DNA of 64,000 nucleotides, taken from positions 875,501 through 939,500 of the forward strand of contig NZ_CP127173.1 in NCBI RefSeq assembly GCF_030264295.1, written 5' to 3'. The notes beneath the pieces are model-generated. The model worked only from the letters and a program-made list of their open reading frames with translations, ran no database searches and had not been told where the DNA came from. Origin of the DNA: Amycolatopsis nalaikhensis (GTDB lineage Bacteria > Actinomycetota > Actinomycetes > Mycobacteriales > Pseudonocardiaceae). Each line of letters opens with the position of its first letter. The first letter of the stretch is position 1. The position numbers and the translations under genes are program-made. This document shows, piece after piece, positions 4,808 to 55,496 of this stretch.

Positions 4808-4917
4808 ATGGAAAGGAGAGCACCCGACGCCTCCACTCACGTCGACACCAACCCAATCCACCACACCGAGCTGATGCCGTACGCGTGGTCGTACGGCATG
4901 GGAGCAGAGTCAACGGT
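4808..4917 (+). pseudogene. PAPS-reductase-family gene, piece 1 of 4
   Basis: This is the N-terminal piece of the backbone gene split by three Tn554-like elements. The ATG at 4808 is preceded by GGAGG with 6-base spacing. It encodes MERRAPDAST... and then the P-loop-like SYGMGAEST of the PAPS-reductase/adenine nucleotide alpha hydrolase superfamily, where ATP or PAPS would bind. The frame is cut after the AACGGT core at 4912-4917. It continues exactly in frame at 19177: tca acg gtc gcc ggg gives STVAG. Without the inserts the protein is 443 aa. This piece alone cannot function. Confidence 0.85.
4912..4917 (+). repeat. Left core of element 1 (AACGGT)
   Basis: This 6-bp core is shared with 19171-19176. 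The flanking bases differ on the element side (TATGG on the left, ACAT on the right), as expected for a site-specific recombination core. Confidence 0.75.
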
Positions 4918-4934
4918 TATGGTGACACTTCACT

Positions 4935-4945
4935 GCTGTCGCAGA
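4935..4945 (+). repeat. Subterminal inverted repeat, left end of element 1
   Basis: GCTGTCGCAGA lies 17 bp inside the left core. Its exact reverse complement lies at 19146-19156, 14 bp inside the right core. This is a candidate recombinase binding site. Confidence 0.6.
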
Positions 4946-5013
4946 GGTCCCTAGCCAACGCCAGCTTCGCTGTGTTTGGCGTGTTCAGATCCCGGAGGAT
5001 CTCAACCTTGCTC

Positions 5014-6453
5014 ATGTACAAGACGTCACCGGTGAGAGCGCTCGGCGCACCTGGGCTCGGCGGTGACGAAGCCCAGGTGCTGCGTCGTGCCGGTGTAGGC
5101 GACGGGCTGCCGTTCCTACTCGGCCCCGACGGCTCGTACGACCTGGAGTTGAACCGGTTCGTGCGCGAGTTGGACGGGTGGGGTGTGCGCTCGGAACACA
5201 CGAGAGAGGCGTACGCGCGTGATCTGATGTTGTTCGGCCGCTTCCTCCACGAGCACCGTGGTGGACGGTCCATCTGGGACGCCGGCCAGGACGATCTGCG
5301 CGCCTACAAGCGGGCGCGGCGGCGGACCAAGGGCTTCACGGTGTCCGCGTCGACCTGGAACAGGTTCATCGCGGCGCTAGACAAGTGGGTCAAGTGGGCG
5401 ATACACGAGGAGCTGATCGAGGCCCAGCCGTTCCGCATGGTGGAGAAGACGGTGTTGACGCCCCGCGGGCTGGTACGGGTGCTGTTCAATGCCGAGCGCG
5501 AGGTCGAGGACAGCGCCGGGCCGGTGCGGTTCCTGGCCTACGAGGACTACCTGGTGTGGCGGGACGTCGGGTTGCGTGGCCAACTACCCGACGGCTCGCC
5601 GGACCCGAGTTGGCGCGGTCGGCACGGCGAGCGCAACGCGGTGTTCGCCGACCTGTTGGTCTGCACCGGGATGCGGCTGAGAGAGGCGTCGAGCCTCCTG
5701 GTCACCGAGGTACCGCCGCTGGCGCAGCGGCGGCTGACCGGAGACCTGAACCTGCCCGCGACGATCACCAAGCGCAGCCGGCCGAGGACGGTTTTCGTGT
5801 CGCGCCGCGTGCTGCGCGACCTGCACCACTACGTCGACATCGAACGCGACGAACTGGTCGAGCGCCGCCGGGCGGCCGGGGCTTACGGGTGTACGGACGC
5901 CTGGATGGGAGTTCGCTCCGCCGGCAAGACTGCGCTGACGCTCGTCGAGGATGGCCGCTCGCGGCCGTACTCGCGGGTGACGATCGAGGAACGGCAGCGA
6001 CTGTGCCGGGTCGGCGACGACGGTCCGGGTGGTCCGTTGTGGCTGTGGCTCGGTGAGGACGGCTTGCCGCTGTCGCGGTCGACGTGGCAGGCGGTGTTTC
6101 GGCGAGCCAACGAACGGTGCGCCCGGTTCGGCCTGGACCTGGTGGTCCATCCGCACGCCCTGCGTCACACATTCGCCGTGCACATGCTCGGGCTGCTGCT
6201 GCGCCAGACCGTCCGCGCGTTGCGCATGGAGCCCGGCGAGACCCTGATGAGCCAGCAGGTGAAACGGCTGCTGGTCGGCGACCCGCTGCGCAAGTTGCAG
6301 CTACTGCTCGGCCATCGCCAGCGCGAGACGGTCTTCGTCTACCTCGACGTCCTGGACGAGGCGCAGGAGATCGTGCTGTCCGCGCTGCGCGAATGGGATG
6401 AACAAGCCGAAGCGCTGAGCAGGGTCCGGCTTGAGGATGGTGCTGCCGCGTGA
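5014..6453 (+). CDS. Tyrosine recombinase A of element 1 (TnpA-like)
   Basis: A site-specific recombinase of the phage-integrase/tyrosine family, expected to cut and rejoin DNA at the element ends. The start is placed at ATG 5014 (MYKTSPVRALG); the frame is open from 4885 but that part crosses the element end. An N-terminal SAM-like core-binding domain (about residues 50-150) precedes the catalytic domain. All catalytic positions are visible: Arg in TGMRLREASSL, HPHALRHTFAV (HxxR), LLLGH, and the Tyr in TVFVYLDVLDE. The stop overlaps the start of recombinase B by 4 bases (GTGA), implying coupled translation. It lies 97 bp inside the left core, like tnpA in Tn554. Confidence 0.88.
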   Translation: MYKTSPVRALGAPGLGGDEAQVLRRAGVGDGLPFLLGPDGSYDLELNRFVRELDGWGVRSEHTREAYARDLMLFGRFLHEHRGGRSIWDAGQDDLRAYKRARRRTKGFTVSASTWNRFIAALDKWVKWAIHEELIEAQPFRMVEKTVLTPRGLVRVLFNAEREVEDSAGPVRFLAYEDYLVWRDVGLRGQLPDGSPDPSWRGRHGERNAVFADLLVCTGMRLREASSLLVTEVPPLAQRRLTGDLNLPATITKRSRPRTVFVSRRVLRDLHHYVDIERDELVERRRAAGAYGCTDAWMGVRSAGKTALTLVEDGRSRPYSRVTIEERQRLCRVGDDGPGGPLWLWLGEDGLPLSRSTWQAVFRRANERCARFGLDLVVHPHALRHTFAVHMLGLLLRQTVRALRMEPGETLMSQQVKRLLVGDPLRKLQLLLGHRQRETVFVYLDVLDEAQEIVLSALREWDEQAEALSRVRLEDGAAA

Positions 6454-8288
6454 ACCGCACCGAGGGTGCCGGCTCCGGTCGCCGTGGCCGCTGGGCGGCT
6501 TTCCCGACCGAGGAGCAGATGCCCGCGCAACCCGCTCCTGTCCCGGACATCGGTCCGCTGGTGCTCCGGCTGCACCTGGATGGCGCCGACCGCACGTTCG
6601 ACATGTCCGCGTGGCCATGCCCGCGGTTGACCCGCCAGCTTGCCGCGACGCTGCGCACGGTGGCCGCCGACGGACCCGAATCGAGTTACCAGGCGTTCAA
6701 GGTGAACCTGTTCTCGGTGCGGAAGTTCGTGCGGTTCATCACTGGAGCCGAACCGCAGAACGCCACCGAGGTCGAGTTCAGTGACCTGGAGGCCGAGCAC
6801 ATCGACGCGTTCGAGCAGGCGCTGATCGCCGAGTACGGACCGGACAGTGACCAGCCGCGCATCAGCATCGGTGTGGTGGTCCGGCTGCTCCGCGTGGCGT
6901 TCGACGCCAGCCCCACGACGTTCGATCCCGACCTGGCTATCCGGCTGAGGTTCCTCGGACGGGAAACCCGTGCCCGTCAGACGAGACCCTTGGATGCCTA
7001 CCCGCAGAACGTGTTCGAGGCGATCAGGAACGCCGCGCTGGCGGATGTCCGCGCGATCGCGCGCCGAATACAGGATGGCGAAGCCCGAGCCGCGACGGGC
7101 CAGGACCCGAACGTCGGCGGTTGGGATGTGATCGAGAACGTGCTGTGGCACATCGCCCGTCACGGGCCTGTCACGATGCAGTTCCTGCGGCCCCTGGTCG
7201 GCAAGAGGCTGGGCAACGGGCGCCCGCTCAACGCGGCGCTCATCCTCACTCGGGAGGACAACGTCGTGTTCCTGATCCTGCTGATCTGCATGACCGGGCT
7301 TGAGCCGGAGTGCGCCAAGCGGTTGCAGGCCGACTGCTTGACCAACCCGGCCCGCGGGTTCGTGAGTGTCAACTATGTCAAGCGGCGCGCGCACGGTCGC
7401 CGGATCTCTAAGTCCATGCGGGTCAGCGATGGCGGTGCCCTGCACCATCCCGGCGGTCTGATCCGACTGGCGCTGCGGCTCACCGCGCGAGCCCGCGAGT
7501 TTAGTGGCAGCACCGATTTGTGGGTCGACTACGGAGACAAGGGCCTGCGGGACTCCTTCCCGCTCGGCGGGCAGGGTCCTTGGGGTCACGTGGACAACTG
7601 GCAGAAACGACACGGCATCGACCAGATGACCGACGCTGACGGAACGCCGGTGCGGCTGGATCTGCGGCGGCTGCGCAAGACCTACAAGTCCCAGCAATAC
7701 CTCAAAGCCACCGGCGTGCTCGCCGACTTCACCCAGGGCCACACCGCCGACGTCGCCGCAAACCACTACGCAAACATCCCCGCCCACGACGAGCTGCACG
7801 ACCAAGCCGTGGAGAACGGCCTGCGCGAAGCGCTGGACGTCGCGCTGCCGCCGCCGGTGGTACTCGACGAGGACGGCACCCGCCTCGATGCCGGAGAAGG
7901 GGACCTGCCACCCGAGCAGGTGCAGGCGCTGCTGTCGCGCGAGAGCGACGTGTTCCTGGCCTCCTGCCGCGACTTCTACGACTCGCCTTTCGGGGCGAAG
8001 GGCAAGCCGTGCCCGGTGTCGTTGTGGGGCTGCCTGGAGTGCCCGAACGCGGTGTTCACCACCCGGCACCTGCCGCAGGTTCTGACCTTCCTGGACTTCA
8101 TCGAGCGCCAGCGGGAGGAGTACCCCGTCAGCGAGTGGAACGTGCGCTACGGCCTGGCGTGGGACCGGATCGTGCGCGGCATCCGGGCCAAGTTCCGAGA
8201 CGAGCAGATCACCACCGCCCAGACGATCGCCGAAAGCGGTGGGGCACGGTTGCTGCTGCCGCCCGAGTTCTGGGAGGCCGTCGCGTGA
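6450..8288 (+). CDS. Tyrosine recombinase-like protein B of element 1
   Basis: The product is 612 aa from GTG 6450. An N-terminal core-binding domain (about 70-170) is followed by a divergent catalytic domain. The box I region reads TGLEPECAKRL, with Glu where active enzymes have Arg. The second box is LDLRRLRKTYKS, lacking the usual HxxR His. The end has QGHTADVAANHYANI with a plausible nucleophile Tyr. Near the C-terminus is KPCPVSLWGCLECPN, a Cys motif also found in the B proteins of the other two modules. It probably acts with A and C in a complex, and may be structural rather than catalytic. It overlaps A and C by 4 bases each. Confidence 0.8.
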   Translation: MNRTEGAGSGRRGRWAAFPTEEQMPAQPAPVPDIGPLVLRLHLDGADRTFDMSAWPCPRLTRQLAATLRTVAADGPESSYQAFKVNLFSVRKFVRFITGAEPQNATEVEFSDLEAEHIDAFEQALIAEYGPDSDQPRISIGVVVRLLRVAFDASPTTFDPDLAIRLRFLGRETRARQTRPLDAYPQNVFEAIRNAALADVRAIARRIQDGEARAATGQDPNVGGWDVIENVLWHIARHGPVTMQFLRPLVGKRLGNGRPLNAALILTREDNVVFLILLICMTGLEPECAKRLQADCLTNPARGFVSVNYVKRRAHGRRISKSMRVSDGGALHHPGGLIRLALRLTARAREFSGSTDLWVDYGDKGLRDSFPLGGQGPWGHVDNWQKRHGIDQMTDADGTPVRLDLRRLRKTYKSQQYLKATGVLADFTQGHTADVAANHYANIPAHDELHDQAVENGLREALDVALPPPVVLDEDGTRLDAGEGDLPPEQVQALLSRESDVFLASCRDFYDSPFGAKGKPCPVSLWGCLECPNAVFTTRHLPQVLTFLDFIERQREEYPVSEWNVRYGLAWDRIVRGIRAKFRDEQITTAQTIAESGGARLLLPPEFWEAVA

Positions 8289-10396
8289 CCCGCGCCCCCG
8301 CACCGCGCCCGTCCGCCGCGCCGGAGCCATCGGCCGATCCCTGGGTGCTGCCCGAGTCCTTGACCACCGAGACAACTGGCCGCGGCCCCCGGTTCAGCGA
8401 CGACATCTGGGATTTCCGACCGTTCGCGCCCCGCAGCAACGGCTACCTCCGGCTGGACTTCACCGAGCTGCCCGACGAGATCGCGATGCTCACGGCCAAG
8501 GAGTTCATCTACTCCCGCATCCACCGCGTGGTCCCGCTGTCCTACGGATCGCGGACCGCCCGACCGATGAAAATCACCAACACCTACAAGGACTTCATCA
8601 TCGTGCGTCAACTGTTTACCGAGCTCGGCAAGCAGGGCGTGACGCGCTTGGCGCAGGCCCGCCAATCCCACCTGGACGCGACCGCACGCGTCTGGCGTGA
8701 GACCTGTGTGCCAAACACGCTGGCTGTCCGGATCGGCGTCATCCAGCACCTGGAGGCGCACAGCCCGTACCTGACCGCGGACCGCCTCACCGTCGTGCCC
8801 TGGAAGGGCCGCCCGGCCACCCAGGTCGCCGGGCGGCGACCGGACGAGGAGAACAGCACCCCGCGCATCCCCGAGCCGATCATGGCTCCACTGCTGCGCG
8901 CCGCCCTGTTCTACGTCCAGACCGCCAGCCGGGACCTCCTGGCCGCCCAGCGGGAAATCGCCGACCTGGAGCAGGCCCGAGCAGGCGGCCGGTGCCGGCA
9001 TGGCGAGGCTGTCACCAAGATCGAGGCGTTCCTGGACCGCCGCCGTCAGGAGGGGCGAGGTGTTCCCGCACTGCCGCTGTACTGCCTGGCCCAGCGCCCG
9101 ACCGCGCCGGTTGTCGACGGCGTCGTGCAAGCCCCGAACGCCGCTCTCGTCGCCCTGATGAGCGGAACCAACAGCTTCCAGGGGCATCCGACACGGCTGA
9201 TGGAGCAGATCGGCGCCGAGATCGGCTACGAAGAGGGTGGTCTGGACACGCCGATCTCGACGTGGCCGGACACCGGGCGACCCTGGCGAGGGCGGCTGAA
9301 TCACCGCAGCCTGCATGACGAACTGCACCACCTGCGCACCGCCTGCTGGGTGCTGGTGGCTTACTTGTCAGGACTTCGGGACATGGAAGTCCTGGAGCTG
9401 GCGCGGGACTGCGCTGTCACCACCACCGCCGTTGACGGCCGGACCCGCTACAAGCTGCGCGGCCGGGTCTTCAAGGGCCGCAAGCTCACCGGTGACGAGG
9501 CCGAGTGGGTCGTGCTCGACGCCGTTCACGAGGCGATCGACGTCCTGCTGCAGATCAACGACGACCCCACGCATCTGTTCGGTTACCGGCTCTGGCCCGC
9601 CAGCAAGCCACGGCTGGCGAACAAGCTCACCGAGCGCCTCGGTGGTTTCCGGGACCACGTCAACGAGCTGTTCGGTACCCAATCGTCCGACGGGGTGGCC
9701 GAACCGTTCGTCCCCGCCGACGGGGAACAGCAGTGGGTGTTCACCACCCGGCAGTTCCGGCGGAGTCTGGCCTGGCATATCGCACACCAGCCCTTCGGTG
9801 TGGTCGCCGGTGCCCGGCAGTACCACCACGCCAAGGTGACCATGTTCGAGGGCTATGCCGGGACCTCAGCCTCTGGGTTCGCCGCCGAGGTCGCCGCCGA
9901 GGAGGCGGTCGCCATGCTCGACTACGTGGAGGATCTTTACCGGGATTGGAACACCGGCGCCCAGTCCGGCGGTGGGGCGGCCGAGCGGATCAACGCCGAG
10001 TTCCAGCGCATTCGGCGCGAGCTGGGTGATCTCCCCGGCGTCGTGTCCGACGAGCTGCGGCTGCGGACGATGCTTCGGCATCTCACCAAGACGCTGCATC
10101 CCGGCGTGCTCAACGACTGCTTCTTCAACGCGGCGACCGCGGTCTGTGTCAAGCGAGCCAAGGTCGTCGGGCAGCCCGTTCCGCAGCACAACATGTGCCT
10201 GCGCTGTCCGAACGCCCGACGGTCCACAGTGCACCGGCCCCGGCTGGCCGCCGCCCGCAATCAGGCCCTGGATCTCCAGGCGTCCTGCGAGAAAGCCGGT
10301 CCGGTCCCGAAACTCCAGCAGGTCGCGCTCACCGGCTACATCACCGAGCTCGACCAGCTCATCGGTGATCTCGACAGCGAGGAGGCGCAGGCGTGA
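8285..10396 (+). CDS. Tyrosine recombinase C of element 1
   Basis: The product is 703 aa from GTG 8285, overlapping the B stop (GTGA). The N-terminal region contains RFSDDIWDF, a motif echoed in the C proteins of the other modules (FADDVWDL, FDQDVWDF). The catalytic domain has SGLRDMEVLEL (box I Arg), TTRQFRRSLAW (second Arg) and YHHAKVTMFEGYAG with the likely Tyr. The C-terminus carries a Cys cluster (NDCFFNAATAVC, MCLRCPN) that may bind zinc. It is longer than typical integrases of about 350-400 aa. Its stop overlaps the start of gene D. Confidence 0.82.
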   Translation: MTRAPAPRPSAAPEPSADPWVLPESLTTETTGRGPRFSDDIWDFRPFAPRSNGYLRLDFTELPDEIAMLTAKEFIYSRIHRVVPLSYGSRTARPMKITNTYKDFIIVRQLFTELGKQGVTRLAQARQSHLDATARVWRETCVPNTLAVRIGVIQHLEAHSPYLTADRLTVVPWKGRPATQVAGRRPDEENSTPRIPEPIMAPLLRAALFYVQTASRDLLAAQREIADLEQARAGGRCRHGEAVTKIEAFLDRRRQEGRGVPALPLYCLAQRPTAPVVDGVVQAPNAALVALMSGTNSFQGHPTRLMEQIGAEIGYEEGGLDTPISTWPDTGRPWRGRLNHRSLHDELHHLRTACWVLVAYLSGLRDMEVLELARDCAVTTTAVDGRTRYKLRGRVFKGRKLTGDEAEWVVLDAVHEAIDVLLQINDDPTHLFGYRLWPASKPRLANKLTERLGGFRDHVNELFGTQSSDGVAEPFVPADGEQQWVFTTRQFRRSLAWHIAHQPFGVVAGARQYHHAKVTMFEGYAGTSASGFAAEVAAEEAVAMLDYVEDLYRDWNTGAQSGGGAAERINAEFQRIRRELGDLPGVVSDELRLRTMLRHLTKTLHPGVLNDCFFNAATAVCVKRAKVVGQPVPQHNMCLRCPNARRSTVHRPRLAAARNQALDLQASCEKAGPVPKLQQVALTGYITELDQLIGDLDSEEAQA

Positions 10397-10815
10397 CCCG
10401 CGTCGCTACCCAAGTCCGCCTGGAGCAGGCGCTGACCCGGCTGCTCGCCGGTCAGCCGACTGTGACCGACGGCGAGCTGACGGTCTCCAACCTGTGCCGG
10501 GAAGCCGGTGTGGGCCGCGACTCGTTCTACCGCTCGCCTCCGGAGTTCAAGGACGCCGTTGTTGCGGCACAAGCGAATCGAGAAGCCCAGCAACCTGAAC
10601 TCGTCGCGCTGCGCGAGGAGATCACCGCCCTCAAGCGGGAACGCAAACAGACCGCCAGCGACCACGCCGCCACCGTGCGGGAACTGGAGGAGACGATCAG
10701 GGTCTACGCCAACCAGATCCAGGTCCTCGCCCTGCGCAACTCGGAGTTGGAGGACCAGATCCGACATCTGGCGCACCACGATCCCGACGTGATCTCGCTT
10801 CACACCCGGAGGTGA
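10393..10815 (+). CDS. TnpC/DUF6262-like coiled-coil protein of element 1
   Basis: The product is 140 aa from GTG 10393, overlapping recombinase C by 4 bases. The N-terminal 50 residues resemble a helix-turn-helix (LTVSNLCREAGVGRDSFYR) and residues about 65-125 form a coiled coil rich in Glu, Arg and Leu. Tn554 TnpC is a small protein of similar size encoded last in the transposase operon and helps orient and stimulate transposition. A similar role in directing the three recombinases is likely. It ends 45 bp before the convergent disulfide-reductase gene. Confidence 0.75.
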   Translation: MTRVATQVRLEQALTRLLAGQPTVTDGELTVSNLCREAGVGRDSFYRSPPEFKDAVVAAQANREAQQPELVALREEITALKRERKQTASDHAATVRELEETIRVYANQIQVLALRNSELEDQIRHLAHHDPDVISLHTRR

Positions 10816-10860
10816 CCCCCGTCCACCGACGCTGTGACACCGAGAGCGGCCGGGCGGTTT

Positions 10861-12216
10861 CTAGATGGCGAGCTGTTCGAGGGCGGCGAGGTACGCCTCG
10901 GTGTAGGTCGGGAATTGGGCGACGCCGTCGAGCAGGGTGTCGATGGAGATCTGGGCGCGGATGGCGAGGGCGGCGGTGTGGATCCATTCCCCGGCTTGGG
11001 GTGCGATGGCCCAGGCCCCGATGAGCGTCCGCTGGGTGCGGTCGGCGATGAGACCGAGGGTGCCGTCGGGGTCGGTTTCGTAAGTCCAGGGTCGCGCGAT
11101 CGAGTCGGCGAGGTCGAGTTCGGTGGTGGCGATGTCGAGGCCACGCTGGCGGGCTTGGTCGGTGGTCAGGCCGACAGCGGCGATCTCGGGTTGGGCGAAC
11201 ACGACGCGGGGGATGCCGCTGTAGGTGGTTTGGCGGGGTGTGCCGAGGATGTTGTCGGCCACGACCCGTCCTTGGTACATGGCGACGTGGGTGAACAGCG
11301 CGACCCCGGTGACGTCGCCGAGCGCCCAGAGGCCGGCGGTGACGCGGCAGTGCTCGTCGACCTCCAGCGCGCCGCGCGGGTCCGGTGTGACCCCGACAGT
11401 CTCCAGGCCGAGCCCGTGGGTGCGGGGGCGGCGTCCGGTGCCGAGCACGACGACGTCGGTGCGCACGGTGGTGCCGTCGTCGAGGTCGATCACCGTATCG
11501 GCGCCGTCGCGGCGCGCGGCGGTGGCCTGCCGGCCGAGACGGACGTCGATGCCGTCGGCGCGCAGGTGGGTGGCGACGATGTCCCCGACACGGGGGTCTT
11601 CCCGGTCCAGCAGCCGGTCGCCGCGCTGGATCAGGGTGACCCGAGCGCCCATGCGAGCGAGGAATTGGCCGAGTTCGATCCCGACGGCGCTGCCGCCGAT
11701 CATCACGATCCGCTCGGGGATCTCGCGCAGGGTGGTAGCTTCCCGGTTGGTCCATACGCTGACCTCGTCCAGGCCCTCGATGGGTGGGTGGATCGCGTCG
11801 GAGCCGGTGGCGATCACCACGTGCTCGGCGGTGAGTTCCCGGCCACCGGCCCGTACCCGCCACGGGTCCCGGCCCACCAGGGCTGCGGTGGCCTTGATAA
11901 CCGTGACGCCCTGCTTCTCGTATCCGGTGACCTGCTCTGTGTCGTCGAGGTGGCGGATCATGTAGTCGCGGTAGTCTCGCAGTGCCGCCCAGTTCTGCGC
12001 CGGAGTGGACAGGCCGGCCGCGTGGGCGGCTTCGGCGCGGGCCTCGGGTGGGCGCAGCAAGGTTTTGGACGGGATACACGCCCAGTAGGCGCACTCCCCG
12101 CCGATCAGTTCCTGCTCGATCAACGCGACCCGCCGTCCGCCCGCGTGCAGGCGCGAGGCGGCGGTCTCGCCGCCCGGTCCGGCGCCGATCACGATTACAT
12201 CGAAGTCCGTACTCAC
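10861..12216 (-). CDS. FAD-dependent pyridine nucleotide-disulfide oxidoreductase
   Basis: The product is 451 aa from GTG 12216 (reading STDFDVIVIGAGPGGETAA). It has the Rossmann GxGxxG FAD site at the start, the redox disulfide in GGECAYWACIPSK, the NAD(P) site MIGGSAVGIELGQF, and the second FAD motif WALGDVTGVALFTHVA. It resembles dihydrolipoamide dehydrogenase/mercuric reductase but lacks both the N-terminal metal-binding domain and the C-terminal vicinal cysteines needed to bind Hg(II) in MerA. It may supply reduced thiols or act on another substrate. It is the last gene of a leftward operon merA-merB-this gene. Confidence 0.85.
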   Translation of the reverse strand: MSTDFDVIVIGAGPGGETAASRLHAGGRRVALIEQELIGGECAYWACIPSKTLLRPPEARAEAAHAAGLSTPAQNWAALRDYRDYMIRHLDDTEQVTGYEKQGVTVIKATAALVGRDPWRVRAGGRELTAEHVVIATGSDAIHPPIEGLDEVSVWTNREATTLREIPERIVMIGGSAVGIELGQFLARMGARVTLIQRGDRLLDREDPRVGDIVATHLRADGIDVRLGRQATAARRDGADTVIDLDDGTTVRTDVVVLGTGRRPRTHGLGLETVGVTPDPRGALEVDEHCRVTAGLWALGDVTGVALFTHVAMYQGRVVADNILGTPRQTTYSGIPRVVFAQPEIAAVGLTTDQARQRGLDIATTELDLADSIARPWTYETDPDGTLGLIADRTQRTLIGAWAIAPQAGEWIHTAALAIRAQISIDTLLDGVAQFPTYTEAYLAALEQLAI

Positions 12217-12265
12217 AGTGGCTGTCCCTTCTCGGTGATGGCGGTTCGGGCGGCGCAGGTGGGCG

Positions 12266-12907
12266 TCAGCAGCACCCGCCGGGCTCGGGCTCCTCGGATT
12301 GAGCGGCGTCCAGCTGCCGGCCGAGTTGATAAGCGTCGGCGACTGGGAGGACCGATCCGCCGGGGTGCTCAGCGAGCCAGGGCGCCGCGGCGTCGGCGTC
12401 GGCGAAGAAGTGCACGTGGTTGCAGAAGGAAGCCCGTACGGAGACCAAGTCGTCAGGCGTGACGATGGAGACCATCGCGGTCTGGGGCTCGACATCCCTG
12501 ACTCGGTCGGGCTCGACGGTGAGCCGTATCGGGGCACCGGTGCTGTGGCAGGGGGATTCAACCTGGGCGGATTGGCCGAGGGTGGCGGGGAAGATGAGGG
12601 TGTCCAGGGCACACCAGGTGTAGAGCTGGTGGCCGTCGACGGTGAAACGGTGCGGGGTCGGGCGCAGCGTGATGCCGTAGCCGACGATCCGTCCGGCGTC
12701 GTCGTATTCGGTGTCGCGCAGTCGGCCCACCGCCTGCGCAACCTCGTCACCGGCGCGGCCGGTGGCGGCCGCGAGGTCGGCAATCGTGAGGGGTTCGCCG
12801 CGGGCCAGTTGCCGCAACAGCGGCTGCCATAGCCATCCGGCCGGGCTGTCCTGGCGGGAGAAGACACTATCCATAGTGGACACCACGGTGTCCAGGTCAT
12901 TCGTCAT
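12266..12907 (-). CDS. merB: Organomercurial lyase MerB
   Basis: The product is 213 aa. MerB splits the carbon-mercury bond of organomercurials by protonolysis and hands Hg(II) to MerA, in the cytoplasm. The three catalytic residues are in place: C99 and D102 in WCALDTLIFP and C162 in FCNHVHFF (C96, D99 and C159 in the plasmid R831b enzyme). The N-terminal winged-helix-like part is present, and the length matches the family (about 210-220). The C-terminus ends GGCC, an added Cys pair that could help pass on the metal. It lies between merA and the second disulfide reductase with short gaps. Confidence 0.93.
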   Translation of the reverse strand: MTNDLDTVVSTMDSVFSRQDSPAGWLWQPLLRQLARGEPLTIADLAAATGRAGDEVAQAVGRLRDTEYDDAGRIVGYGITLRPTPHRFTVDGHQLYTWCALDTLIFPATLGQSAQVESPCHSTGAPIRLTVEPDRVRDVEPQTAMVSIVTPDDLVSVRASFCNHVHFFADADAAAPWLAEHPGGSVLPVADAYQLGRQLDAAQSEEPEPGGCC

Positions 12908-12934
12908 CGGGATTGTCCTTCCGAGAGCAGGGTT

Positions 12935-14320: not shown

Positions 14321-14353
14321 CAGCGATCTCCTCCCACTGACATATTCGTCTTC

Positions 14354-14398
14354 CCGGATGCATAGATGCTAACCTAAGATTCGTACATCCGGATACGA
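14354..14398. promoter_or_regulatory. merA/merR divergent control region with inverted repeats
   Basis: In the 90-bp gap between merA and the repressor, CCGGATG (14354-14360) and CATCCGG (14386-14392) form an inverted repeat. TCGTA...TACGA (14381-14398, 8-bp spacer) overlaps the right arm. These are candidate operator sites for the ArsR-type repressor, which would control both directions. The exact promoters were not resolved. Confidence 0.5.
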
Positions 14399-14410
14399 CA
14401 GACACTCGAT

Positions 14411-15133: not shown

Positions 15134-15136
15134 CCC

Positions 15137-45859: not shown

Positions 45860-45861
45860 GG

Positions 45862-46068: not shown

Positions 46069-46197
46069 CGTCCTCACGTTCCTCGGGCGCGACACGGCAC
46101 CACTCCAACTCGATGACGAATACATCATCTGCGCACTTAAAGAACTTCGCAACTGCTGGATCGTGCGAGAAGGGCCACATGTGGCGGCCGTGTGTCG

Positions 46198-49226: not shown

Positions 49227-49903
49227 CAGTCGCGCAACTCCCGGAGCTCATCCAGGTCGGTATCGCCGAACGTCTCCCGCATCCGGGCGGTGAGGATCTG
49301 CAGCACCAGCACCGCCAGCAGCACGTCCAGCGAGACGCCGAGCTCGACGATCAGCCCGACCCCGGAGGTGGTGAGGAACCCGACCGCGGTGATCCCGTTG
49401 TCCATCAACAGGAAACCCACCAGCTGGGACAGCGCACGGCGTCGGGTGACCAGCACGAAGAACCCGATGAGCACCACGGTCAGCCCGATCGGGATCGCTT
49501 GCGTGGCCGGTGACATCAGCCCGGATGGCGCCAGTTCCACCAGCGGCCGGGATACCGCGTAGGCCAGCAGCGTCAGCACTGCGGCCGTCAGCAACGAGGC
49601 GGCGACGTTGACCAACGGCCGGGTCTCCCGCCGTGCTTCGCCCGCACTCGCCAGAGCCCGCCGCAGCAGATACGGCAGCACACCCGCGCGCAGCACGAGC
49701 ACGCCGGCCGCGACCGCGCCCAGTTCGATCGAGTCCTCGTGCACGGCCAGCACCCCGACGAGCGCGGCGAGCGCGGCGCCTTGCACCGCGAACACGTGAA
49801 TGATCACCACGAGTTCCCGGCGCCAGAGCACGAGCACCGCGGTCAGCAGCAGGCCGCCGCAGGCCAGGTCGAGCAGCTGCACGAAGAGGGTCTCGTTCAC
49901 CAC
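49226..49903 (-). CDS. hycP: Ehr membrane subunit HycP/HyfE
   Basis: The product is 225 aa from GTG 49903. It is a small membrane subunit with about six to seven helices, of the HyfE type (NuoK-related end: GFLLMDNGITAVGFLTTSGVG with the acidic residue in a helix). A hydrophilic tail ends ETFGDTDLDELRELRD. It is the counterpart of Rv0085. It shares one base with hycQ and is separated from hycD by 10 bases. Confidence 0.85.
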   Translation of the reverse strand: MVNETLFVQLLDLACGGLLLTAVLVLWRRELVVIIHVFAVQGAALAALVGVLAVHEDSIELGAVAAGVLVLRAGVLPYLLRRALASAGEARRETRPLVNVAASLLTAAVLTLLAYAVSRPLVELAPSGLMSPATQAIPIGLTVVLIGFFVLVTRRRALSQLVGFLLMDNGITAVGFLTTSGVGLIVELGVSLDVLLAVLVLQILTARMRETFGDTDLDELRELRD

Positions 49904-49913
49904 ACTTTCCCTT

Positions 49914-50861
49914 TCAGGCCAGGAAGAACGAGGCCGCGACGGCGAGCAGGGACAGCAGGAACGACCCGGCCAGCAGTTCGGGAACCCGGAACAGGCGCAG
50001 CTTGGCCAGGAACACCTCACCCGCCGCCAACAGCACACCCAGCAGGCCAACCTTGATGATCAACGCCAGCACGCCGACCAGTAGGGCAATGGGGGTGGCG
50101 GTGCTGGCGATGCCCCAGGGCAGGAACAGGTTGGCCAGCAGTCCGAGGAACACCGACATCCGCATCGCAGAGGCCAGCTCGACCAGCGCGAGGTCCGGGC
50201 CGGCGTACTCCAGCACCATCGCCTCGTGCACCATGGTCAGCTCCAGGTGCGTCGACGGGTTGTCCACCGGCAGCCTGCCGGTCTCGGCGACGATCACGAT
50301 GATGAGCGCGACCGCGGCCAGCAGGCTGACTCGGGAGATCACCCGCGCCGGGTCGTGCAGGGTCGCGGACACGATCGCGCCGAGGTTGGTCGACCCGACC
50401 CGCACCGACAACGCGAAGATCGACACCAGCAGCGTCGGCTCCACCAGCGCGAGGATGGTCATCTCCCGGCTGGAGCCCATGCCCCCGAACGCGGTCCCGG
50501 TGTCCAGCCCGGCCAGCGCGAGCGTGACCGCACCTAACGCCAGCAGCGCCACCACCGCGAACAGGTCCGCGACCGGATCGACCGCCGAATCGGTGGTCAC
50601 GAACGGCGTCACTACCGCGACCACCAGGGTGGTGGCGACCAACACCAGCGGCGCGACTCGGAACACCTCGCTGGTGCCCCGCGGGCTGATGCGTTCCTTG
50701 CCGAACAACTTGCGCAGGTCTCGCCACGGCTGCCCGACGCCCGGCCCGGCGCGCCCTTCCAGCCTCGCGCGGACCTGCCGCATCACCCCCACCAGCAACG
50801 GTGACCCGGCCACGATCAGCACCGGCTGCACCACGCCGCCCACGATCCCGAGCGCGCTCAC
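49914..50861 (-). CDS. hycD: Ehr membrane subunit HycD/HyfC (NuoH-like)
   Basis: The product is 315 aa from GTG 50861, overlapping the NuoL/M-like gene by 4 bases. It is a NuoH-type protein with about eight helices. The cytoplasmic loop GVGQPWRDLRKLFGKERI, the acidic LELTMVHEAMVLEYAGPDLAL region and the pattern of helices match quinone/proton channel subunits of complex I and group 4 hydrogenases. It links the small soluble subunit to the membrane arm. It is the counterpart of Rv0084. Confidence 0.88.
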   Translation of the reverse strand: MSALGIVGGVVQPVLIVAGSPLLVGVMRQVRARLEGRAGPGVGQPWRDLRKLFGKERISPRGTSEVFRVAPLVLVATTLVVAVVTPFVTTDSAVDPVADLFAVVALLALGAVTLALAGLDTGTAFGGMGSSREMTILALVEPTLLVSIFALSVRVGSTNLGAIVSATLHDPARVISRVSLLAAVALIIVIVAETGRLPVDNPSTHLELTMVHEAMVLEYAGPDLALVELASAMRMSVFLGLLANLFLPWGIASTATPIALLVGVLALIIKVGLLGVLLAAGEVFLAKLRLFRVPELLAGSFLLSLLAVAASFFLA

Positions 50862-52891
50862 CGGGTCACCGCCACCAGGATCAACACCGCGCACAGGGTG
50901 TAAAAGCCGTAACCGAGGTAGCGGTGCACGCTCCCGGTGGCCAGCCGCCGCCCAGCCCGGCCCCACGCCGCCACAGCCGCCAGGACCGGCTCGTAGAGTC
51001 GGCGTTCGACCCGATCGGGCACCTTCCGCCGGTACTCCACGGCCTGCACCAGGTAGCGCGACTCCTCGTGGTGGGTTACGTCCACGTCCTGCTCCGGTCG
51101 CACGACATCGTCGAACACCCGCTGCAGCGGCTCGGCGAACGAGGTCGCGGTGTACTCCATCCGCGCGGACATCGGACCACCACCGCAATCCCACAACCGC
51201 GCTGCGCGCCGCGCCCGCCGCGCGGCCACGACCCGCACCGCACCCACGACCAGGACGACCGCAGCCAGCAACGCGAGAGTGAGCATCAGCGGCGACAACG
51301 CCCCAGCGACCCCGGCCAGCCGCACGGTCACCGCCCCGGACACCGCCGGATCCCCAACTCCCAACGCGACGCCGGAGACGGTCCCCACGGCCGGCAGGAC
51401 CAGAGTCGGCAGCAACGCCAGCACCACGCAGGCCACGCCCGCCAGGCCCATGCCGACGAGCATGGCCGGCGGACTCTCATGGGCGTTCCCGGCGGCGGCG
51501 CTGCGAGGTTTGGCCAGGAACCCGACCCCGAACGCCTTGACGAACGTGGCCACCGCCAACCCAGCGGTCAACGCCACCGCCGCGACGGCCAACGGCATCG
51601 CGATCGCCGCGGCTGTCCCGCCCGTGGCTCCGGGAGCGGGCAGGCCATGAATCAACGCCTGCAACAGCAGCCACTCGGACACGAACGCCGTCCCCGGCGG
51701 CAACGCCGACGCGGCCAACGCGCCCAGCCCGAACGCTGCGGTGGTCTGCGGCATCCCCGCCCGCAGACCACCGAGCGCGTCCAGGTCCCGTGCACCGGTG
51801 CCGTGCAGCACCGACCCGGCCGCCAGGAACAACAACGTCTTGAACGCCGCGTGATTGATCACATGCAGCAGCGCCGCCGCCAGCGCCACACCAGCCAGCA
51901 CCCGGTTACCGGACGTCGCGAACACCCCGGCCGCGCCGACCCCGACCAGCACCAAACCCATGTTCTCCGTCGTCGACTGGCCCAGCAGCCGCTTGAGGTC
52001 GGTGCTCATCGCCGCCTGCAGGATCCCGTACACCGCCGAGACCGCACCCAGCGCGAGAACCAGCAGCCACCACCACAGCGTGCCGCCGCCGAGCAGGTCG
52101 AACCCGACCCGCACCAGCCCATACACGCCCAGGTTCACCATGGCCGCCGACATCAACGCCGACACGTGACTCGGCGCCTCCGGATGCGCCCGCGGCAGCC
52201 ACGCGTGCAGCGGCAGAATCCCCGCCTTCGACGCGAAACCCGCCAACGTCACCACGAACACCAGGCCGGCCGCCCCCGGCGACAGGTGCCGACCGGCCTC
52301 CCGCAACGCCGGGAACGAGTCATCGGCCGCGTGCGCCACGAACACCAACAGTCCGATCAGCACAGCCACGAACCCGAGGTGGGTCATCACCGCGTACCAG
52401 CGTCCCGCCTGCGCCACCTCGGGGCGGTGCCGGTGCTCGGCCACCACCAGCAGCAGCGAGAACAGGGCCATCAGCTCCCAGCACACCAGGAACGTGCCCA
52501 CGCTCGCCGCCGCGGGCACCAGCAGCATCGCCACCACGAACAGCGGGAACACCACCTGCACACCGCGAGCGTCCAAGCCGTGCGAGCGGGTGTAGGAGAT
52601 GCCGTACACGCCGGCCGCCACCGCGACGCCGCCGGTCACCGCGACGAACAACCCGCCCAGCGCGTCCAGCGTGAGCGACACCCCGGACAGCGGCAACAGC
52701 CCAGGCAGCGCCACCGACAACGACGAGCCGGTCATCGCCCCGACACCGGCCATCACGCCAGCCCCGCCGGTGACCACGGTGCCCGTGCCCGCCACCGCCG
52801 ATCGCACCCGGCGCGGCACCACCACGGCCGCCAGCGCGGTCAACACCCCTGCGGCGAGCGCACCGCCGAGGCCCACTGCTACGAGACTCAT
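50858..52891 (-). CDS. Ehr NuoL/M-like membrane subunit (Rv0083-like)
   Basis: The product is 677 aa from ATG 52891 with about 16 membrane helices, a large proton-pump subunit of the NuoL/HyfB type. Features: FLVCWELMALFSLLLVV (conserved Glu), SKAGILPLHAWLPRAHPEAPSHVSALMSA (conserved Lys and His), and DLKRLLGQSTTENMGLVL. The C-terminal extension ends with soluble residues and a last helix. It is encoded between the NuoB-like gene and hycD with overlaps on both sides. It is the counterpart of Rv0083. Confidence 0.88.
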   Translation of the reverse strand: MSLVAVGLGGALAAGVLTALAAVVVPRRVRSAVAGTGTVVTGGAGVMAGVGAMTGSSLSVALPGLLPLSGVSLTLDALGGLFVAVTGGVAVAAGVYGISYTRSHGLDARGVQVVFPLFVVAMLLVPAAASVGTFLVCWELMALFSLLLVVAEHRHRPEVAQAGRWYAVMTHLGFVAVLIGLLVFVAHAADDSFPALREAGRHLSPGAAGLVFVVTLAGFASKAGILPLHAWLPRAHPEAPSHVSALMSAAMVNLGVYGLVRVGFDLLGGGTLWWWLLVLALGAVSAVYGILQAAMSTDLKRLLGQSTTENMGLVLVGVGAAGVFATSGNRVLAGVALAAALLHVINHAAFKTLLFLAAGSVLHGTGARDLDALGGLRAGMPQTTAAFGLGALAASALPPGTAFVSEWLLLQALIHGLPAPGATGGTAAAIAMPLAVAAVALTAGLAVATFVKAFGVGFLAKPRSAAAGNAHESPPAMLVGMGLAGVACVVLALLPTLVLPAVGTVSGVALGVGDPAVSGAVTVRLAGVAGALSPLMLTLALLAAVVLVVGAVRVVAARRARRAARLWDCGGGPMSARMEYTATSFAEPLQRVFDDVVRPEQDVDVTHHEESRYLVQAVEYRRKVPDRVERRLYEPVLAAVAAWGRAGRRLATGSVHRYLGYGFYTLCAVLILVAVTR

Positions 52892-53373
52892 CGACCGGTC
52901 AGCTTCCGCAGCCCCTCGACGATCGCCTCCGGCCGCGGCGGGCACCCGGCGATCTCCACATCCACCGGCACGACGTCCCGCACCGCCCCGGCCACCCCGT
53001 ACGCCCCGGCGAACACACCGCAGTTCCGCGCACAGTCCCCGACCGCGACCACCAGCTTCGGCCCCGGCACCGCCTCGTAAGTCCGCCGTAACGGCTCGGC
53101 CATATTGCGCGTCACCGGCCCGGTCACCACCAGCGCATCCGCGTGCCGAGGCGAGGCCACCAGCCGGGCACCGTACCGCTCGGCGTCGTACACCGGCCCG
53201 AACGCCGAGCCGATCTCCACCTCGCAGCCGTTGCACGAGCCCGCGTCCACATGCCGGATCTGCACCGAACCGCCCAACTCGGCCGCGACCGCCGACCGGT
53301 CGACGACCGGCGAGGGCGGCGCCGGTTCGGCCACCCGCCCAGTCCTGCGGATCTTGCGCAACAAGCCCAGCAC
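52888..53373 (-). CDS. Ehr small subunit, NuoB-like [4Fe-4S] protein (Rv0082-like)
   Basis: The product is 161 aa using GTG 53373, which has GGGAG upstream; the longer frame to 53499 reads through the terminator-like hairpin and is not protein-like. The four ligands of the N2-type cluster are in SCNGCEVE, GDCARNCG and GCPPRPE. It passes electrons to the membrane arm. Because the large subunit has no NiFe centre, the electron donor is open. It is the first gene of the leftward six-gene ehr operon, after the hairpin. Its stop overlaps the next gene's ATG. Confidence 0.85.
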   Translation of the reverse strand: MLGLLRKIRRTGRVAEPAPPSPVVDRSAVAAELGGSVQIRHVDAGSCNGCEVEIGSAFGPVYDAERYGARLVASPRHADALVVTGPVTRNMAEPLRRTYEAVPGPKLVVAVGDCARNCGVFAGAYGVAGAVRDVVPVDVEIAGCPPRPEAIVEGLRKLTGR

Positions 53374-53411
53374 AATCTGCTCCCACGTCGGTTCCGAAAA
53401 GAGGACGAGGC

Positions 53412-53460
53412 GCGCCTCACCCCGCCGGGCAACGAGCCAGGGATCGACGGGGTGAGGCGC
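53412..53460. terminator. Perfect 13-bp hairpin between arsR and ehr operon
   Basis: GCGCCTCACCCCG (53412-53424) pairs perfectly with CGGGGTGAGGCGC (53448-53460) over a 23-base loop. It starts 4 bases after the arsR stop and ends 39 bases before the NuoB-like start. It could be a partial terminator/attenuator between arsR and the operon or an operator. No U-run follows, so strong termination is not assured. Confidence 0.6.
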
Positions 53461-53464
53461 TGCT

Positions 53465-53854
53465 CTAGCCGCTCGGCGACGCGGAACCGGGCGGGCCACC
53501 GCCCAGGTTCGCCGCCGAGGAGGCCGGAGTGCGGAGGTCCTCCAGCAGTTCCACCTGCCCGGACAGCACCCCCGTCAAGATCAATCGCGCAACCGCCAGC
53601 AACTCGGCCACATGCGGGCTGGTCAGCGAGTAATAAACGTTCGAGCCTTCCTTGCGCGTGGTCACCAGCCCCGCGCGGCGCAGCACCGCCAACTGCTGCG
53701 ACAGGTTCGCCGGCTCGATCCCGACCTCCGGCAGCATCTCCGCGACCGCGTGCTCCCGCTGACTGAGCAACTCCAGCACCCGGATCCGCGCCGGATGTCC
53801 CAACGTCTTGAAGAACTCCGCCTTGAGCTGATACAGGGGCCTGCTCACCAGCAC
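53465..53854 (-). CDS. ArsR-family regulator of the ehr island (Rv0081-like)
   Basis: The product is 129 aa. The winged-helix domain spans residues about 8-95 (FFKTLGHPARIRVLELLSQREHAVAEM; ANLSQQLAVLRRAGLVTTRKEGSNVYY). There are no metal-binding cysteines. The tail is Gly/Ser/Pro-rich. In M. tuberculosis Rv0081, the same-position ArsR regulator, is a hypoxia hub that represses its own operon. The palindrome at 53977-53992 is the obvious operator for control of itself and the divergent CBS-BON gene. Confidence 0.88.
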   Translation of the reverse strand: MLVSRPLYQLKAEFFKTLGHPARIRVLELLSQREHAVAEMLPEVGIEPANLSQQLAVLRRAGLVTTRKEGSNVYYSLTSPHVAELLAVARLILTGVLSGQVELLEDLRTPASSAANLGGGPPGSASPSG

Positions 53855-53976
53855 CCCTCCCTACCTGCTCGCGACACGCCACCCGCGCCCTGACCATCGG
53901 TCGTCGTCATACCGCCGATCCTTCCTGGTCCGCGCCCCACAGCGAGGACAGGACACCTGGTCGCACGGTTCAACAG

Positions 53977-53992
53977 TTGCTAACCTTAGCAA
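53977..53992. promoter_or_regulatory. ArsR operator candidate
   Basis: TTGCTAA-CC-TTAGCAA is a perfect 7-bp inverted repeat with a 2-base spacer. It lies in the 200-bp gap between the ArsR gene and the divergent CBS-BON gene, in an AT-richer setting. Confidence 0.75.
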
Positions 53993-54056
53993 GTCCGAAA
54001 GGGCGTGCCGCGACGCCTGCGCCACGGCCACCCACGCGCCAGGTGGGAGGCGAAAG

Positions 54057-54722
54057 ATGCGTGAGCTGACCGTCGCCGACGTGATGACCCGGCAGGTCAT
54101 CACCGCCGTTCCTGACACCACGTTCAGGGAACTCGTCGGCACGATGATCGTGCACGGCCTCGACGCTCTTCCGGTCATCGACCACTCCGGCCGGCCGATC
54201 GGCGTCGTCGCCGAAGCCGACACCCTGACCAAACTGGAGTTCCACGGCGGCGCCGACCAGGCACCCCTCTTCGCCGGCACTCGCCGCCGCAACCGGTGGT
54301 ACAAGGCTCACGGGCTGACCGCCGCCGATCTGATGACCCGGCCCGCTCTCACCGTCATCGACGACAGCACGCTCGATCGGGCCGTGCACGCGATGGCCGA
54401 CCACGGCGTGCGCCGCCTGTATGTCGTCGAGCACACCGGCCACCTCGTCGGCGTCCTTACCCGCCACGACGCACTGAGACTGTTCCTCCGCAGTGACAGC
54501 GCCATCCTGGCTGACATCGAACGTGCGATCCTCGGCAAGGCCACCCGCACACGCCGACTCACCGTGCGCGTCACCGACGGCATCGTGACGCTCGACGGCA
54601 CGCTCGCCCTCCACAGCGCCGTCGAGCGCGCCAAAATCATCACCAGCCGCGTGCCCGGCGTCATCGCCGTGCACAACAACCTCCGCTACGACCTCGACGA
54701 CCTCATGATCACCGGGCTGTAG
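54057..54722 (+). CDS. CBS-CBS-BON domain protein
   Basis: The product is 221 aa. Two CBS motifs (VADVMTRQVITAVPDTTFREL and, at about residue 90, AADLMTRPALTVIDDSTLDRA) form a nucleotide-sensing Bateman pair. A C-terminal BON domain follows (VRVTDGIVTLDGTLALHSA ... VPGVIAVHNNL). Such CBS-BON proteins occur in DosR-type dormancy regulons and are thought to sense adenylate state. It is divergent from the ArsR gene and shares the palindrome between them. It is the last cargo gene of element 3. Confidence 0.88.
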   Translation: MRELTVADVMTRQVITAVPDTTFRELVGTMIVHGLDALPVIDHSGRPIGVVAEADTLTKLEFHGGADQAPLFAGTRRRNRWYKAHGLTAADLMTRPALTVIDDSTLDRAVHAMADHGVRRLYVVEHTGHLVGVLTRHDALRLFLRSDSAILADIERAILGKATRTRRLTVRVTDGIVTLDGTLALHSAVERAKIITSRVPGVIAVHNNLRYDLDDLMITGL

Positions 54723-54959
54723 CAGCCTCACTGAGAGGTTGAGAACAGCCCACCCTGCCAATGCCACATAGCGGACGGCAACACCCGCAGGTCCGGCTCG
54801 CCCTCGTCGCCAGCCACGTGCGATGCGGTGTTCCAGTCATACAACCTGGGTGAATACGCGGGATCTCGTCGCCAGGGCAGATGACAACTAATCCAAGAGC
54901 ATTGAAGTAGAGTTCCCTGCGGCGAACGCCGAACACTTCTAAACACGCCACATAACACC
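54723..54959. other. Right end of element 3, non-coding
   Basis: About 240 bases with no gene, ending at the right junction. It contains GCCGAACACT (also found just inside the left end at 35081-35090) and ACATAA near the border. It probably holds recombinase binding sites. Confidence 0.5.
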
Positions 54960-54961
54960 GC
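54960..54961 (+). repeat. Right junction of element 3
   Basis: GC matches the left junction at 35070-35071. Sequence to its right resumes the split gene in frame: gca ctg aac ccc cga. Confidence 0.55.
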
Positions 54962-55496
54962 ACTGAACCCCCGATCCGGGTTGTTCGGTCCTGGCAAGTC
55001 GTTGATCAACCGGCTGCAACGCGACCGCGTCACCGAGCCGGTCAAACTGGCCGCCGCGCGGATGAAACGCATGCCGTGGGCGGTCTACCGCGTGCGTCGC
55101 TTCTACTCCGCGCCTGCCAACGCGATTCGCTCGGTGGATCGCGTCCTGCTCGGCGGTCACCTGGTGGTGTACGCCGCACTGGAGGAGATGAGTGACCTCG
55201 TCGGCGTGCCTCTGGTGCGCCACGAGCAGATCGCGGGCGCACCAGTACGCGGTGGCGATCGGGACGTCCACCGACGTCTGTGGGTGCGCCAACGTCAAGA
55301 CGGGGCGTACCCGGCCATGGAGGAGTTCTACACCGTGGCCCCGGCACAAGCGCTGGACAAGTCCATGGATCGCTTCGACGACACCTGGGCCGCGCACACC
55401 GACAAGCTGCTCGCTCGCCTGGAAAGCCGTTGCGAGGCCGCGGCTGACGTGGTGCGGCACGCCCTGACTCGCTCCCGGTTCACCAGCGCGTCCTAA
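54962..55496 (+). pseudogene. PAPS-reductase-family gene, piece 4 of 4
   Basis: This is the C-terminal piece, residues about 266-443 of the reconstructed protein, ending at TAA 55494-55496. It reads LNPRSGLFGPGKSLINRL, then MPWAVYRVRRFYSAP, and ends in a helical tail (FDDTWAAHTDKLLARLESR). An apparent start at TTG 54981 exists but there is no ribosome binding site; the frame extends upstream into the element. The C-terminus after the Cys motif in this family typically contains such a NPR..LFG segment, supporting the join. The next backbone gene begins 134 bases later. Confidence 0.85.

What the first reader, a model, noticed from the sequence alone, without database searches (positions are those of the whole stretch)
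4808..55496. One PAPS-reductase-family gene split into four exact pieces by three different Tn554-like elements
Four fragments in the same orientation (4808-4917, 19177-19760, 34969-35071, 54962-55496) encode consecutive parts of one protein. With the three inserts removed at their junctions the pieces total 1332 nt = 444 codons, with no frameshift or internal stop, and the joins rebuild SYGMGAESTVAG, SCCRHCPYAGC and VWLALNP. Each insert begins with its own three-recombinase + coiled-coil module and carries different cargo. I know of no description of one gene hit by three elements of this kind at three separate sites.
Basis: partly seen in the sequence, partly recalled or inferred. Interest (0 to 1): 0.97.

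Follow-up and report, generated by a model that had tools for sequence, protein, structure and literature searches.

The report
Gene with three mobile-island docking sites
Three different mobile DNA islands sit inside one bacterial gene, each at its own exact site, and closely related islands occupy the same three sites in other genera and on plasmids, so this gene is likely a shared docking point that lets such islands travel between species.

Summary
Four collinear pieces make one PAPS-reductase-like gene cut by three elements (E1 14.3, E2 15.2, E3 19.9 kb). An uninterrupted homologue, 97-98% identical, exists in Prauserella endophytica.

Each element starts with an intact four-gene module (three tyrosine-recombinase-type genes, one DUF6262-like gene): GInt-like rather than Tn554-like. 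The three modules are only 25-39% identical to each other. Close relatives of each keep to its own site. E1 is 99.96% identical on a Mycolicibacterium chubuense plasmid, at the same codon of a homologue only 34% identical. E3 is 99.9% identical over 16.8 kb in Prauserella muralis (right flank 71%). E2-type ends lie at site 2 in nine loci. A Nocardia farcinica plasmid has the E1 right end at site 1 and an E3-type element at site 3 of one copy. Other recombinase elements use site 2 and a fourth site.

Best reading: a plasmid/ICE backbone gene serving as multi-port landing pad. More distant GinA relatives sit elsewhere. Programmed reassembly is unlikely.

The parts
4808..4916 (+). Piece 1 of the PAPS-reductase-like gene, with the J1 left core 4911-4916 (CAACGG)
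4917..19172 (+). E1, 14,256 nt GInt-like element with mercury cargo; left arm TTATGGTGAC, right arm GTTTACATAA
   Evidence: 99.96% identical on plasmid pMYCCH.01
5014..10815 (+). E1 gin module: A about 5014-6453 (listed ORF starts 4885), B 6450-8288, C 8285-10396, D 10393-10815
   Evidence: A start inferred from the annotated CDS of the pMYCCH.01 copy
10864..18964 (.). E1 cargo: FAD/NAD oxidoreductase, merB, merA, ArsR, thioredoxin, CcdA, MerR-type regulator, MFS transporter
   Evidence: Pfam; names from the 99.96% identical copy
19179..19760 (+). Piece 2, with the J2 left core 19755-19760 (ACTGTC); the J1 right core is 19173-19178 (CGGTCG)
19761..34962 (+). E2, 15,202 nt GInt-like element; arms TTCTCTCCGC and GCGGCCAGAA
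19823..25747 (+). E2 gin module: A 19823-21328, B 21328-23094, C 23091-25274, D about 25271-25747
25915..34523 (.). E2 cargo: TetR, insertion sequence 26984-28370, MFS, MerR, SulP transporter, others
34969..35071 (+). Piece 3 (34969-35065) and the J3 left core 35066-35071 (GCTGGC); the J2 right core is 34963-34968 (TCTGTC)
35072..54955 (+). E3, 19,884 nt GInt-like element; arms TTATGTAGGG and CGCCACATAA
   Evidence: 99.88% identical over 16,770 nt in Prauserella muralis
35111..41089 (+). E3 gin module: A 35111-36631, B 36628-38478, C 38475-40664, D 40661-41089
41318..54722 (.). E3 cargo: S30AE-C domain protein, pyridoxamine-oxidase-like, PEPCK, complex-I/Mrp-like subunits, ArsR, CBS-BON protein
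54956..55496 (+). J3 right core 54956-54961 (CACCGC, ancestral) and piece 4 to the stop codon
985..1762 (+). C-terminal part of a second PAPS-reductase gene (paps2), itself interrupted upstream of the window by another integrase-bearing insert
3172..4017 (+). Mom-family gene of the shared backbone
59958..63933 (-). Replication-relaxation protein and TraG/HerA-like ATPase: conjugative-type backbone

Best explanation
Three GInt-like integrative elements lie in one PAPS-reductase-like gene of a plasmid- or ICE-type backbone, each at its own 6-bp core site, where each was likely inserted by the recombinases it encodes. Shown by sequence: the cores and arms, intact modules, uninterrupted homologues, and recurrence of the same element-site pairs in other genera and on plasmids. 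Inferred: the module cuts with a 6-nt stagger and joins a circular form of the element to the core. At J3 the right core is still the ancestral sequence while the left core is foreign, as that model predicts. Inferred: the gene is a landing pad that lets GInts, whose transfer between cells could not be shown in the original study, ride on conjugative DNA between hosts, and several separate ports let cargo stack up in one gene. The encoded protein is likely lost while the ports are filled; removal of each insert at its core would leave the reading frame whole.
For: Intact homologues over all joints, same length after correction. E1 in the window and in A. echigonensis: 99.75-100% identical in 2-kb bins, while the flanks are 92.75% and 93.6% identical and the cores differ, which fits separate recent integrations at the same site. 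E1 is 99.96% identical on pMYCCH.01 at the same Ser-Thr codons of a homologue 34% identical. E3 is 99.88% identical over 16,770 nt in P. muralis, right flank 71.3%. E2 is 92.7-96.8% identical in K. persicum, right flank 74.2% over 97 nt. Loci where an element end was seen at its port: E1-type at J1 six, E2-type at J2 nine, E3-type at J3 four. Target homologue on 113 of 72,556 plasmid records; syntenic backbone with Replic_Relax and TraG-like genes.
Against: No excision or transfer was observed. Among GinA relatives in 386 family genomes, 4 of 7 genomes with an E1-type hit of 60% identity or more are at J1, and 4 of 13 E2-type hits of 53% or more are tied to J2, so port fidelity holds only for close relatives, and even an 88% identical, truncated E2-type copy lies elsewhere. 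The same E3 search did not complete (10 tries). The J1, J2 and J3 DNA is not unusually conserved (percentiles 22, 79, 55; protein-level windows 73-88). Long direct repeats, reported for GInts, were not found. MOB-suite calls only 1 of the 113 plasmids conjugative, 48 mobilizable and 64 non-mobilizable. The first catalytic Arg is missing in the second gene here, whereas in described GInts it is missing in GinC.
Confidence: 0.8

Rival explanations
1. Programmed reassembly: the elements are excised in some cells or conditions and the PAPS-like protein is made again, as with cyanobacterial nif interruption elements.
For: All pieces are open and collinear; 10 nonsynonymous and 37 synonymous differences from P. 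endophytica, dN/dS 0.08; each element has an intact recombinase module.
Against: The same gene in A. echigonensis has a nonsense codon. Other occupied copies have lost parts: the own 4.2-Mb copy, K. persicum, N. farcinica. E1 in the window is nearly identical to copies elsewhere, so it likely arrived too recently for selection after insertion to be read from the pieces.
Confidence: 0.06
2. A dispensable accessory gene that tolerates hits: the elements have loose specificity and only survivors in a non-essential gene are seen.
For: Interrupted copies decay elsewhere, and related GinA lineages sit outside the gene.
Against: Breaks cluster at the same codons in homologues 30-98% identical, and each close lineage keeps its own port over genera; loose targeting would scatter.
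Confidence: 0.1
3. Vertical inheritance of an old composite: the three elements entered once and were passed on or moved together with their flanks.
For: J1 and, by contig ends, J3 are both occupied in A. echigonensis as well.
Against: Element identity far exceeds flank identity (E1: 99.75-100% against 93%, and 99.96% against 52%; E3: 99.88% against 71%), the cores differ between hosts, and J2 is empty in A. echigonensis.
Confidence: 0.03

Closest known systems
GInts (ginABCD genomic islands; Bardaji et al. 2017, PMC5385486; parts 1-3 of 6 of the text read)
   Same: Three tyrosine-recombinase-type genes plus a small TnpC-like gene at one end, variable cargo, sharply defined target, 6-nt exchange region.
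   Different: Hosts named in the parts I read are Proteobacteria, Bacteroidetes, Firmicutes and Verrucomicrobia, and targets there are gene ends, 5' ends or intergenic; those parts name no gene holding several GInts. Here three lineages cut one coding gene internally, in Actinomycetota.
SEs, strand-biased circularizing elements (PMC10214605; passages only)
   Same: Four-gene core with three recombinase-type proteins and a small coiled-coil protein; the degenerate recombinase (Tfp) is listed second, as here.
   Different: Reported in Gammaproteobacteria and listed as leaving no empty site; sequence relation to E1-E3 not tested.
Tn554 and the Tn554-related actinobacterial pairs (PMC3414803; passages only)
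   Same: Tyrosine-recombinase transposons, some with a TnpC-like partner. The two-recombinase elements found at J4 and J2 in relatives (about 340-410 plus 730-815 aa) fit the short-plus-long pairs described there.
   Different: Tn554 and those pairs have two recombinases; E1-E3 have three.
Interruption elements of heterocystous cyanobacteria (PMC4874684; start of abstract and passages)
   Same: One gene cut at several sites by several elements (nifD of Rivularia, four).
   Different: Linked to cell differentiation and mostly in nitrogen-fixation genes. Here an accessory gene on mobile DNA and cargo islands.
RIT elements (PMC3414803; passages only)
   Same: Trios of overlapping tyrosine-recombinase genes; one case lies in radC of an ICE.
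   Different: No fourth DUF6262-like gene is mentioned in the passages I saw.

Membership tests
GInt | Operon of three tyrosine-recombinase-type genes plus a small fourth gene at the 5' end | tested here: met
   E1, E2 and E3 each have four intact overlapping or abutting ORFs; cotranscription not testable. GinA carries the R..HxLRH..LGH..Y signature (motif recalled) and hits Phage_integrase; GinC has R..R..H..Y but no Pfam hit; gene 4 hits DUF6262 below cut-off.
GInt | Which recombinase lacks the first catalytic Arg (GinC in described GInts) | tested here: not met
   Here the second gene (GinB) lacks it and the third keeps it.
GInt | Short AT-rich 3' end | tested here: inconclusive
   Last 200 nt at GC percentile 14 (E1), 3 (E2), 0.5 (E3) of the window.
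GInt | Flanking imperfect direct repeats of 10-17 nt | tested here: inconclusive
   Best ungapped repeats 7/9, 8/9 and 6/8; instead 6-nt cores with inverted arms, 8/12 matches each.
GInt | Site-specific insertion with hybrid att sites from 6-nt staggered cuts | tested here: met
   Element-site pairs recur; J3 attR core equals the empty-site sequence and the attL core differs. The cutting itself is inferred.
GInt | Sequence homology of GinC and GinD with reference GInt proteins | not tested
   Reference proteins were not fetched; among the 40 plasmid rows listed for GinC of E1, rhizobial integrases are 35-38% identical.
GInt | Excision as a circle needing all four genes | not testable with these tools
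   Needs PCR and mutants.
Tn554 | Two recombinases (TnpA, TnpB) plus TnpC, inserted in radC (target recalled) | tested here: not met
   Three recombinase-type genes; target is a PAPS-reductase-like gene.
Cyanobacterial-type interruption element | Developmentally timed excision restores the gene | not testable with these tools
   No expression or read data; decay in relatives speaks against it.

The most novel reading that the evidence does not exclude
A coding gene of conjugative DNA works as an integron-like multi-port dock. At least four fixed ports are each read by their own recombinase lineages, so unrelated islands stack in one gene, travel with plasmids and ICEs over genera, and can each leave without breaking the reading frame. 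This would be the missing vehicle of GInts.
Probability: 0.5. Interest if true: 0.86.

Novelty: new variant of a known kind. Interest (0 to 1): 0.78.

Why it matters
The GInt paper could show excision and site-specific integration but failed to show transfer between cells. A target gene that is itself on plasmids and ICE-type backbones supplies a concrete, testable vehicle, and the near-identical copies in different genera point to recent movement of metal-resistance and metabolic cargo by this route. The three ports, with natural core variants in many hosts, also give ready-made recombinase-site pairs for dissecting how three-recombinase systems choose a site.

Tried and rejected
Mosaic origin of piece 3: it looked more diverged from P. 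endophytica (89% against 96-100% for the other pieces), but 4 of the 11 differences lie in the 6-nt core, and without it there are 7 in 99 nt; dropped. Ports chosen for DNA conservation: percentiles 22, 79 and 55; not supported. GinB structure: model unusable, pLDDT 38.5. Solved relatives of GinB, GinC and the target by sequence: none convincing. Fold search of the target model (pLDDT 91.9): weak matches to LarE, GMP synthase and PAPS reductase, none with E of 0.001 or less. The break at J2 in G185 and the breaks at residues 133-134 (G011, G206) lack a recognisable element end and are not counted. One search lists fragment ends near the ports, but some come from split alignments (K. persicum and N. 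puris at J3), unrelated PAPS proteins (L018, L019) or loci without an element end (L046, L053, L109), and were dropped from the port counts. The reading of the A. echigonensis copy was off by one base and was redone.
Full report
WHERE. The window is bases 875,501-939,500 of a single 10.67-Mb contig.

THE GENE. The four pieces join in frame. A protein search found 167 homologues; the top hits covering at least 93% of the query are 70-78% identical. The label rests on a PHROG hit of piece 2 (phosphoadenosine phosphosulfate reductase, E 7e-9) and a weak fold match. Pfam PF01507 does not hit it. Its chemistry is not known.

EXACT JOINTS. Aligning the joints with intact genes shows a 6-nt core at each side of each element, between chromosomal sequence and short inverted arms (E1 TTATG.., E2 TTCT.., E3 TTATGT..; 8/12 matches in each pair, reached by 0.0094 of 20,000 random pairs). 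J3 is the clearest. P. endophytica has GTGTG-CACCGC-ACTGAAC; the window has GTGTG-GCTGGC-element and element-CACCGC-ACTGAAC. The ancestral core is on the right and a foreign core on the left, as expected from a 6-nt staggered exchange. At J1 and J2 neither window core equals the P. endophytica core exactly. With one core per joint the gene has 442 codons, exactly as in P. endophytica.

THE ELEMENTS. Each has an intact four-gene module. GinA carries the full tyrosine-recombinase signature, GinC most of it, and GinB lacks the first Arg; only GinA has Pfam hits. Gene 4 matches DUF6262 below its cut-off. Between elements GinA is 29-39% identical, GinB 26-27% and GinC 26-30%, so these are three lineages, not copies. 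Cargo: E1 mercury genes (merA, merB), ArsR, thioredoxin, CcdA, MFS; E2 MFS, SulP transporter, regulators; E3 PEPCK, complex-I-like subunits, CBS-BON protein.

MOVEMENT. (a) E1 in A. echigonensis is 99.75-100% identical in 2-kb bins over 14.3 kb, while left and right flanks are 92.75% and 93.6% and the cores differ; J2 is empty there. (b) The E1 module is 95.2% identical over 5,853 nt in Actinokineospora inagensis at J1, and a second K. philippinense gene copy has a broken E1-type GinA at J1. (c) E1 is 99.96% identical over its whole length on the 615-kb plasmid pMYCCH.01 of Mycolicibacterium chubuense, at J1 of a homologue 33.6% identical. (d) E3 is 99.88% identical over 16,770 nt in P. muralis at J3, right flank 71.3%, and GinA there is 100% identical. 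(e) E2 is 92.7-96.8% identical over two stretches totalling 12.9 kb in K. persicum, whose copy lacks the insertion sequence at 26984-28370. (f) A Nocardia cyriacigeorgica plasmid has an E2-type element at J2 (77% identical over 6 kb). A N. farcinica plasmid has the last 1.4 kb of E1 (99.9%) at J1 and an E3-type element (95.7% over 6 kb) at J3 of the same gene copy.

PORT USE. Loci in which an element end was seen at its port: E1-type at J1, six (window, A. echigonensis, A. inagensis, K. philippinense second copy with the left end only, pMYCCH.01, N. farcinica plasmid with the right end only). E2-type at J2, nine (window, G350 by its left end, G004 with the left end about 23 codons off, K. persicum, own 4.2-Mb remnant, A. 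echigonensis contig C22, G376, N. puris, N. cyriacigeorgica plasmid; five of these - K. persicum, the remnant, C22, G376, N. puris - by the right end alone). E3-type at J3, four (window, P. muralis, N. farcinica plasmid, and A. echigonensis, where the gene pieces stop at contig ends and a separate contig starts with an E3-type left end). In these loci none was seen at another lineage's port.

OTHER CLASSES AT THE SAME GENE. A two-recombinase module lies at J2 in G151 (contig C57; contig C51 shows the same element end without the genes) and on the M. rufum plasmid; a 3.9-kb insert with recombinase genes and the same kind of left end lies at J2 on a Streptomyces SYP-A7193 plasmid. Two-recombinase modules lie at a fourth site, J4 (residue 147), in G097, G244 and Actinoplanes aureus. 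On a Rhodococcus PD04 plasmid the gene is fused at J4 to a recombinase CDS.

LIMITS OF FIDELITY. GinA relatives further off sit elsewhere. With E1 GinA, 4 of 7 genomes with hits of 60% identity or more are at J1. With E2 GinA, 4 of 13 hits of 53% or more are tied to J2, one (K. persicum) by its right end only; a truncated 88% identical copy in G159 is not. The equivalent E3 search did not complete. Of 220 plasmid records with an E3 GinA relative, only the N. farcinica one is 60% identical or more.

VEHICLE. The gene lies in a backbone with a second PAPS-reductase gene, a Mom-family gene, a YgjP-like gene, a replication-relaxation gene and a TraG-like ATPase. In P. endophytica all nine backbone proteins tested are present (81-100% identical, L037), and several are present in A. 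arida, A. rubida, Lentzea and others. The target homologue is on 113 of 72,556 plasmid records, 80 of them covering at least 80% of the query; PLSDB of the 113 mobilizable, 1 conjugative and 64 non-mobilizable. One of 50,697 phage records matched, over 24% of the query. The window copy itself is on the 10.67-Mb contig. Transfer by this vehicle is inferred.

FUNCTION OF THE SPLIT GENE. dN/dS against P. endophytica is 0.08, but so recent an interruption can hardly be read from this. The A. echigonensis copy has a nonsense codon and several other occupied copies are truncated, so I rate programmed restoration at 6%.

LITERATURE. GInts: PMC5385486, parts 1-3 of 6 read. SEs: PMC10214605, passages. 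Multi-element genes: PMC4874684, start of abstract and passages. Tn554-related actinobacterial pairs and RITs: PMC3414803, passages. PMC8138268, passages. The word phosphoadenosine occurs in neither of the last two. No report of this gene as a target appeared among the listed rows, of which several show only the top of a long list; subscription journals are mostly not held.

Noticed in passing
L036 (G000:C1:857000-876500) 6563 to window 1762: The second PAPS-reductase gene of the same backbone (paps2) is also interrupted, by about 12.5 kb starting with a tyrosine integrase, an HTH gene and a zinc-ribbon protein, so this backbone carries at least four integrase-bearing inserts in two PAPS-type genes.
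   Followed up: partly
L033 (G000:C1:4203000-4222900), about 1-9970: Elsewhere in the same genome an E2-type right end abuts a truncated piece 3 of another PAPS-like gene, next to an inverted PEPCK/complex-I cargo 72-78% identical to that of E3.
   Followed up: partly
window 26984-28370: An insertion sequence with 27-nt inverted ends and a DDE_5 transposase lies in E2; the K. persicum copy of E2 lacks this stretch almost to the base.
   Followed up: partly
window 19157-19190; L153 24824; L157 12006: The right end of E1 supplies a TTG start and the codons L-T-V-Y-I in frame with the downstream part of the target; the plasmid annotations of M. chubuense and N. farcinica begin a CDS there.
   Followed up: no
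L154 5962-10053: On a Rhodococcus sp. PD04 plasmid the N-terminal part of the PAPS-like protein lies at the start of a 1363-aa recombinase CDS, joined at the fourth port.
   Followed up: no
L099 8294-9709: In Nocardia vinacea the fourth port holds only a 1.7-kb insert with one DUF6602 gene and no recombinase found, perhaps moved in trans.
   Followed up: no
L157 19291-31375: The E3-type element of a Nocardia farcinica plasmid carries a heat-shock cargo (ClpB, DnaK, GrpE, Hsp20, proteases) instead of the metabolic genes of E3.
   Followed up: no
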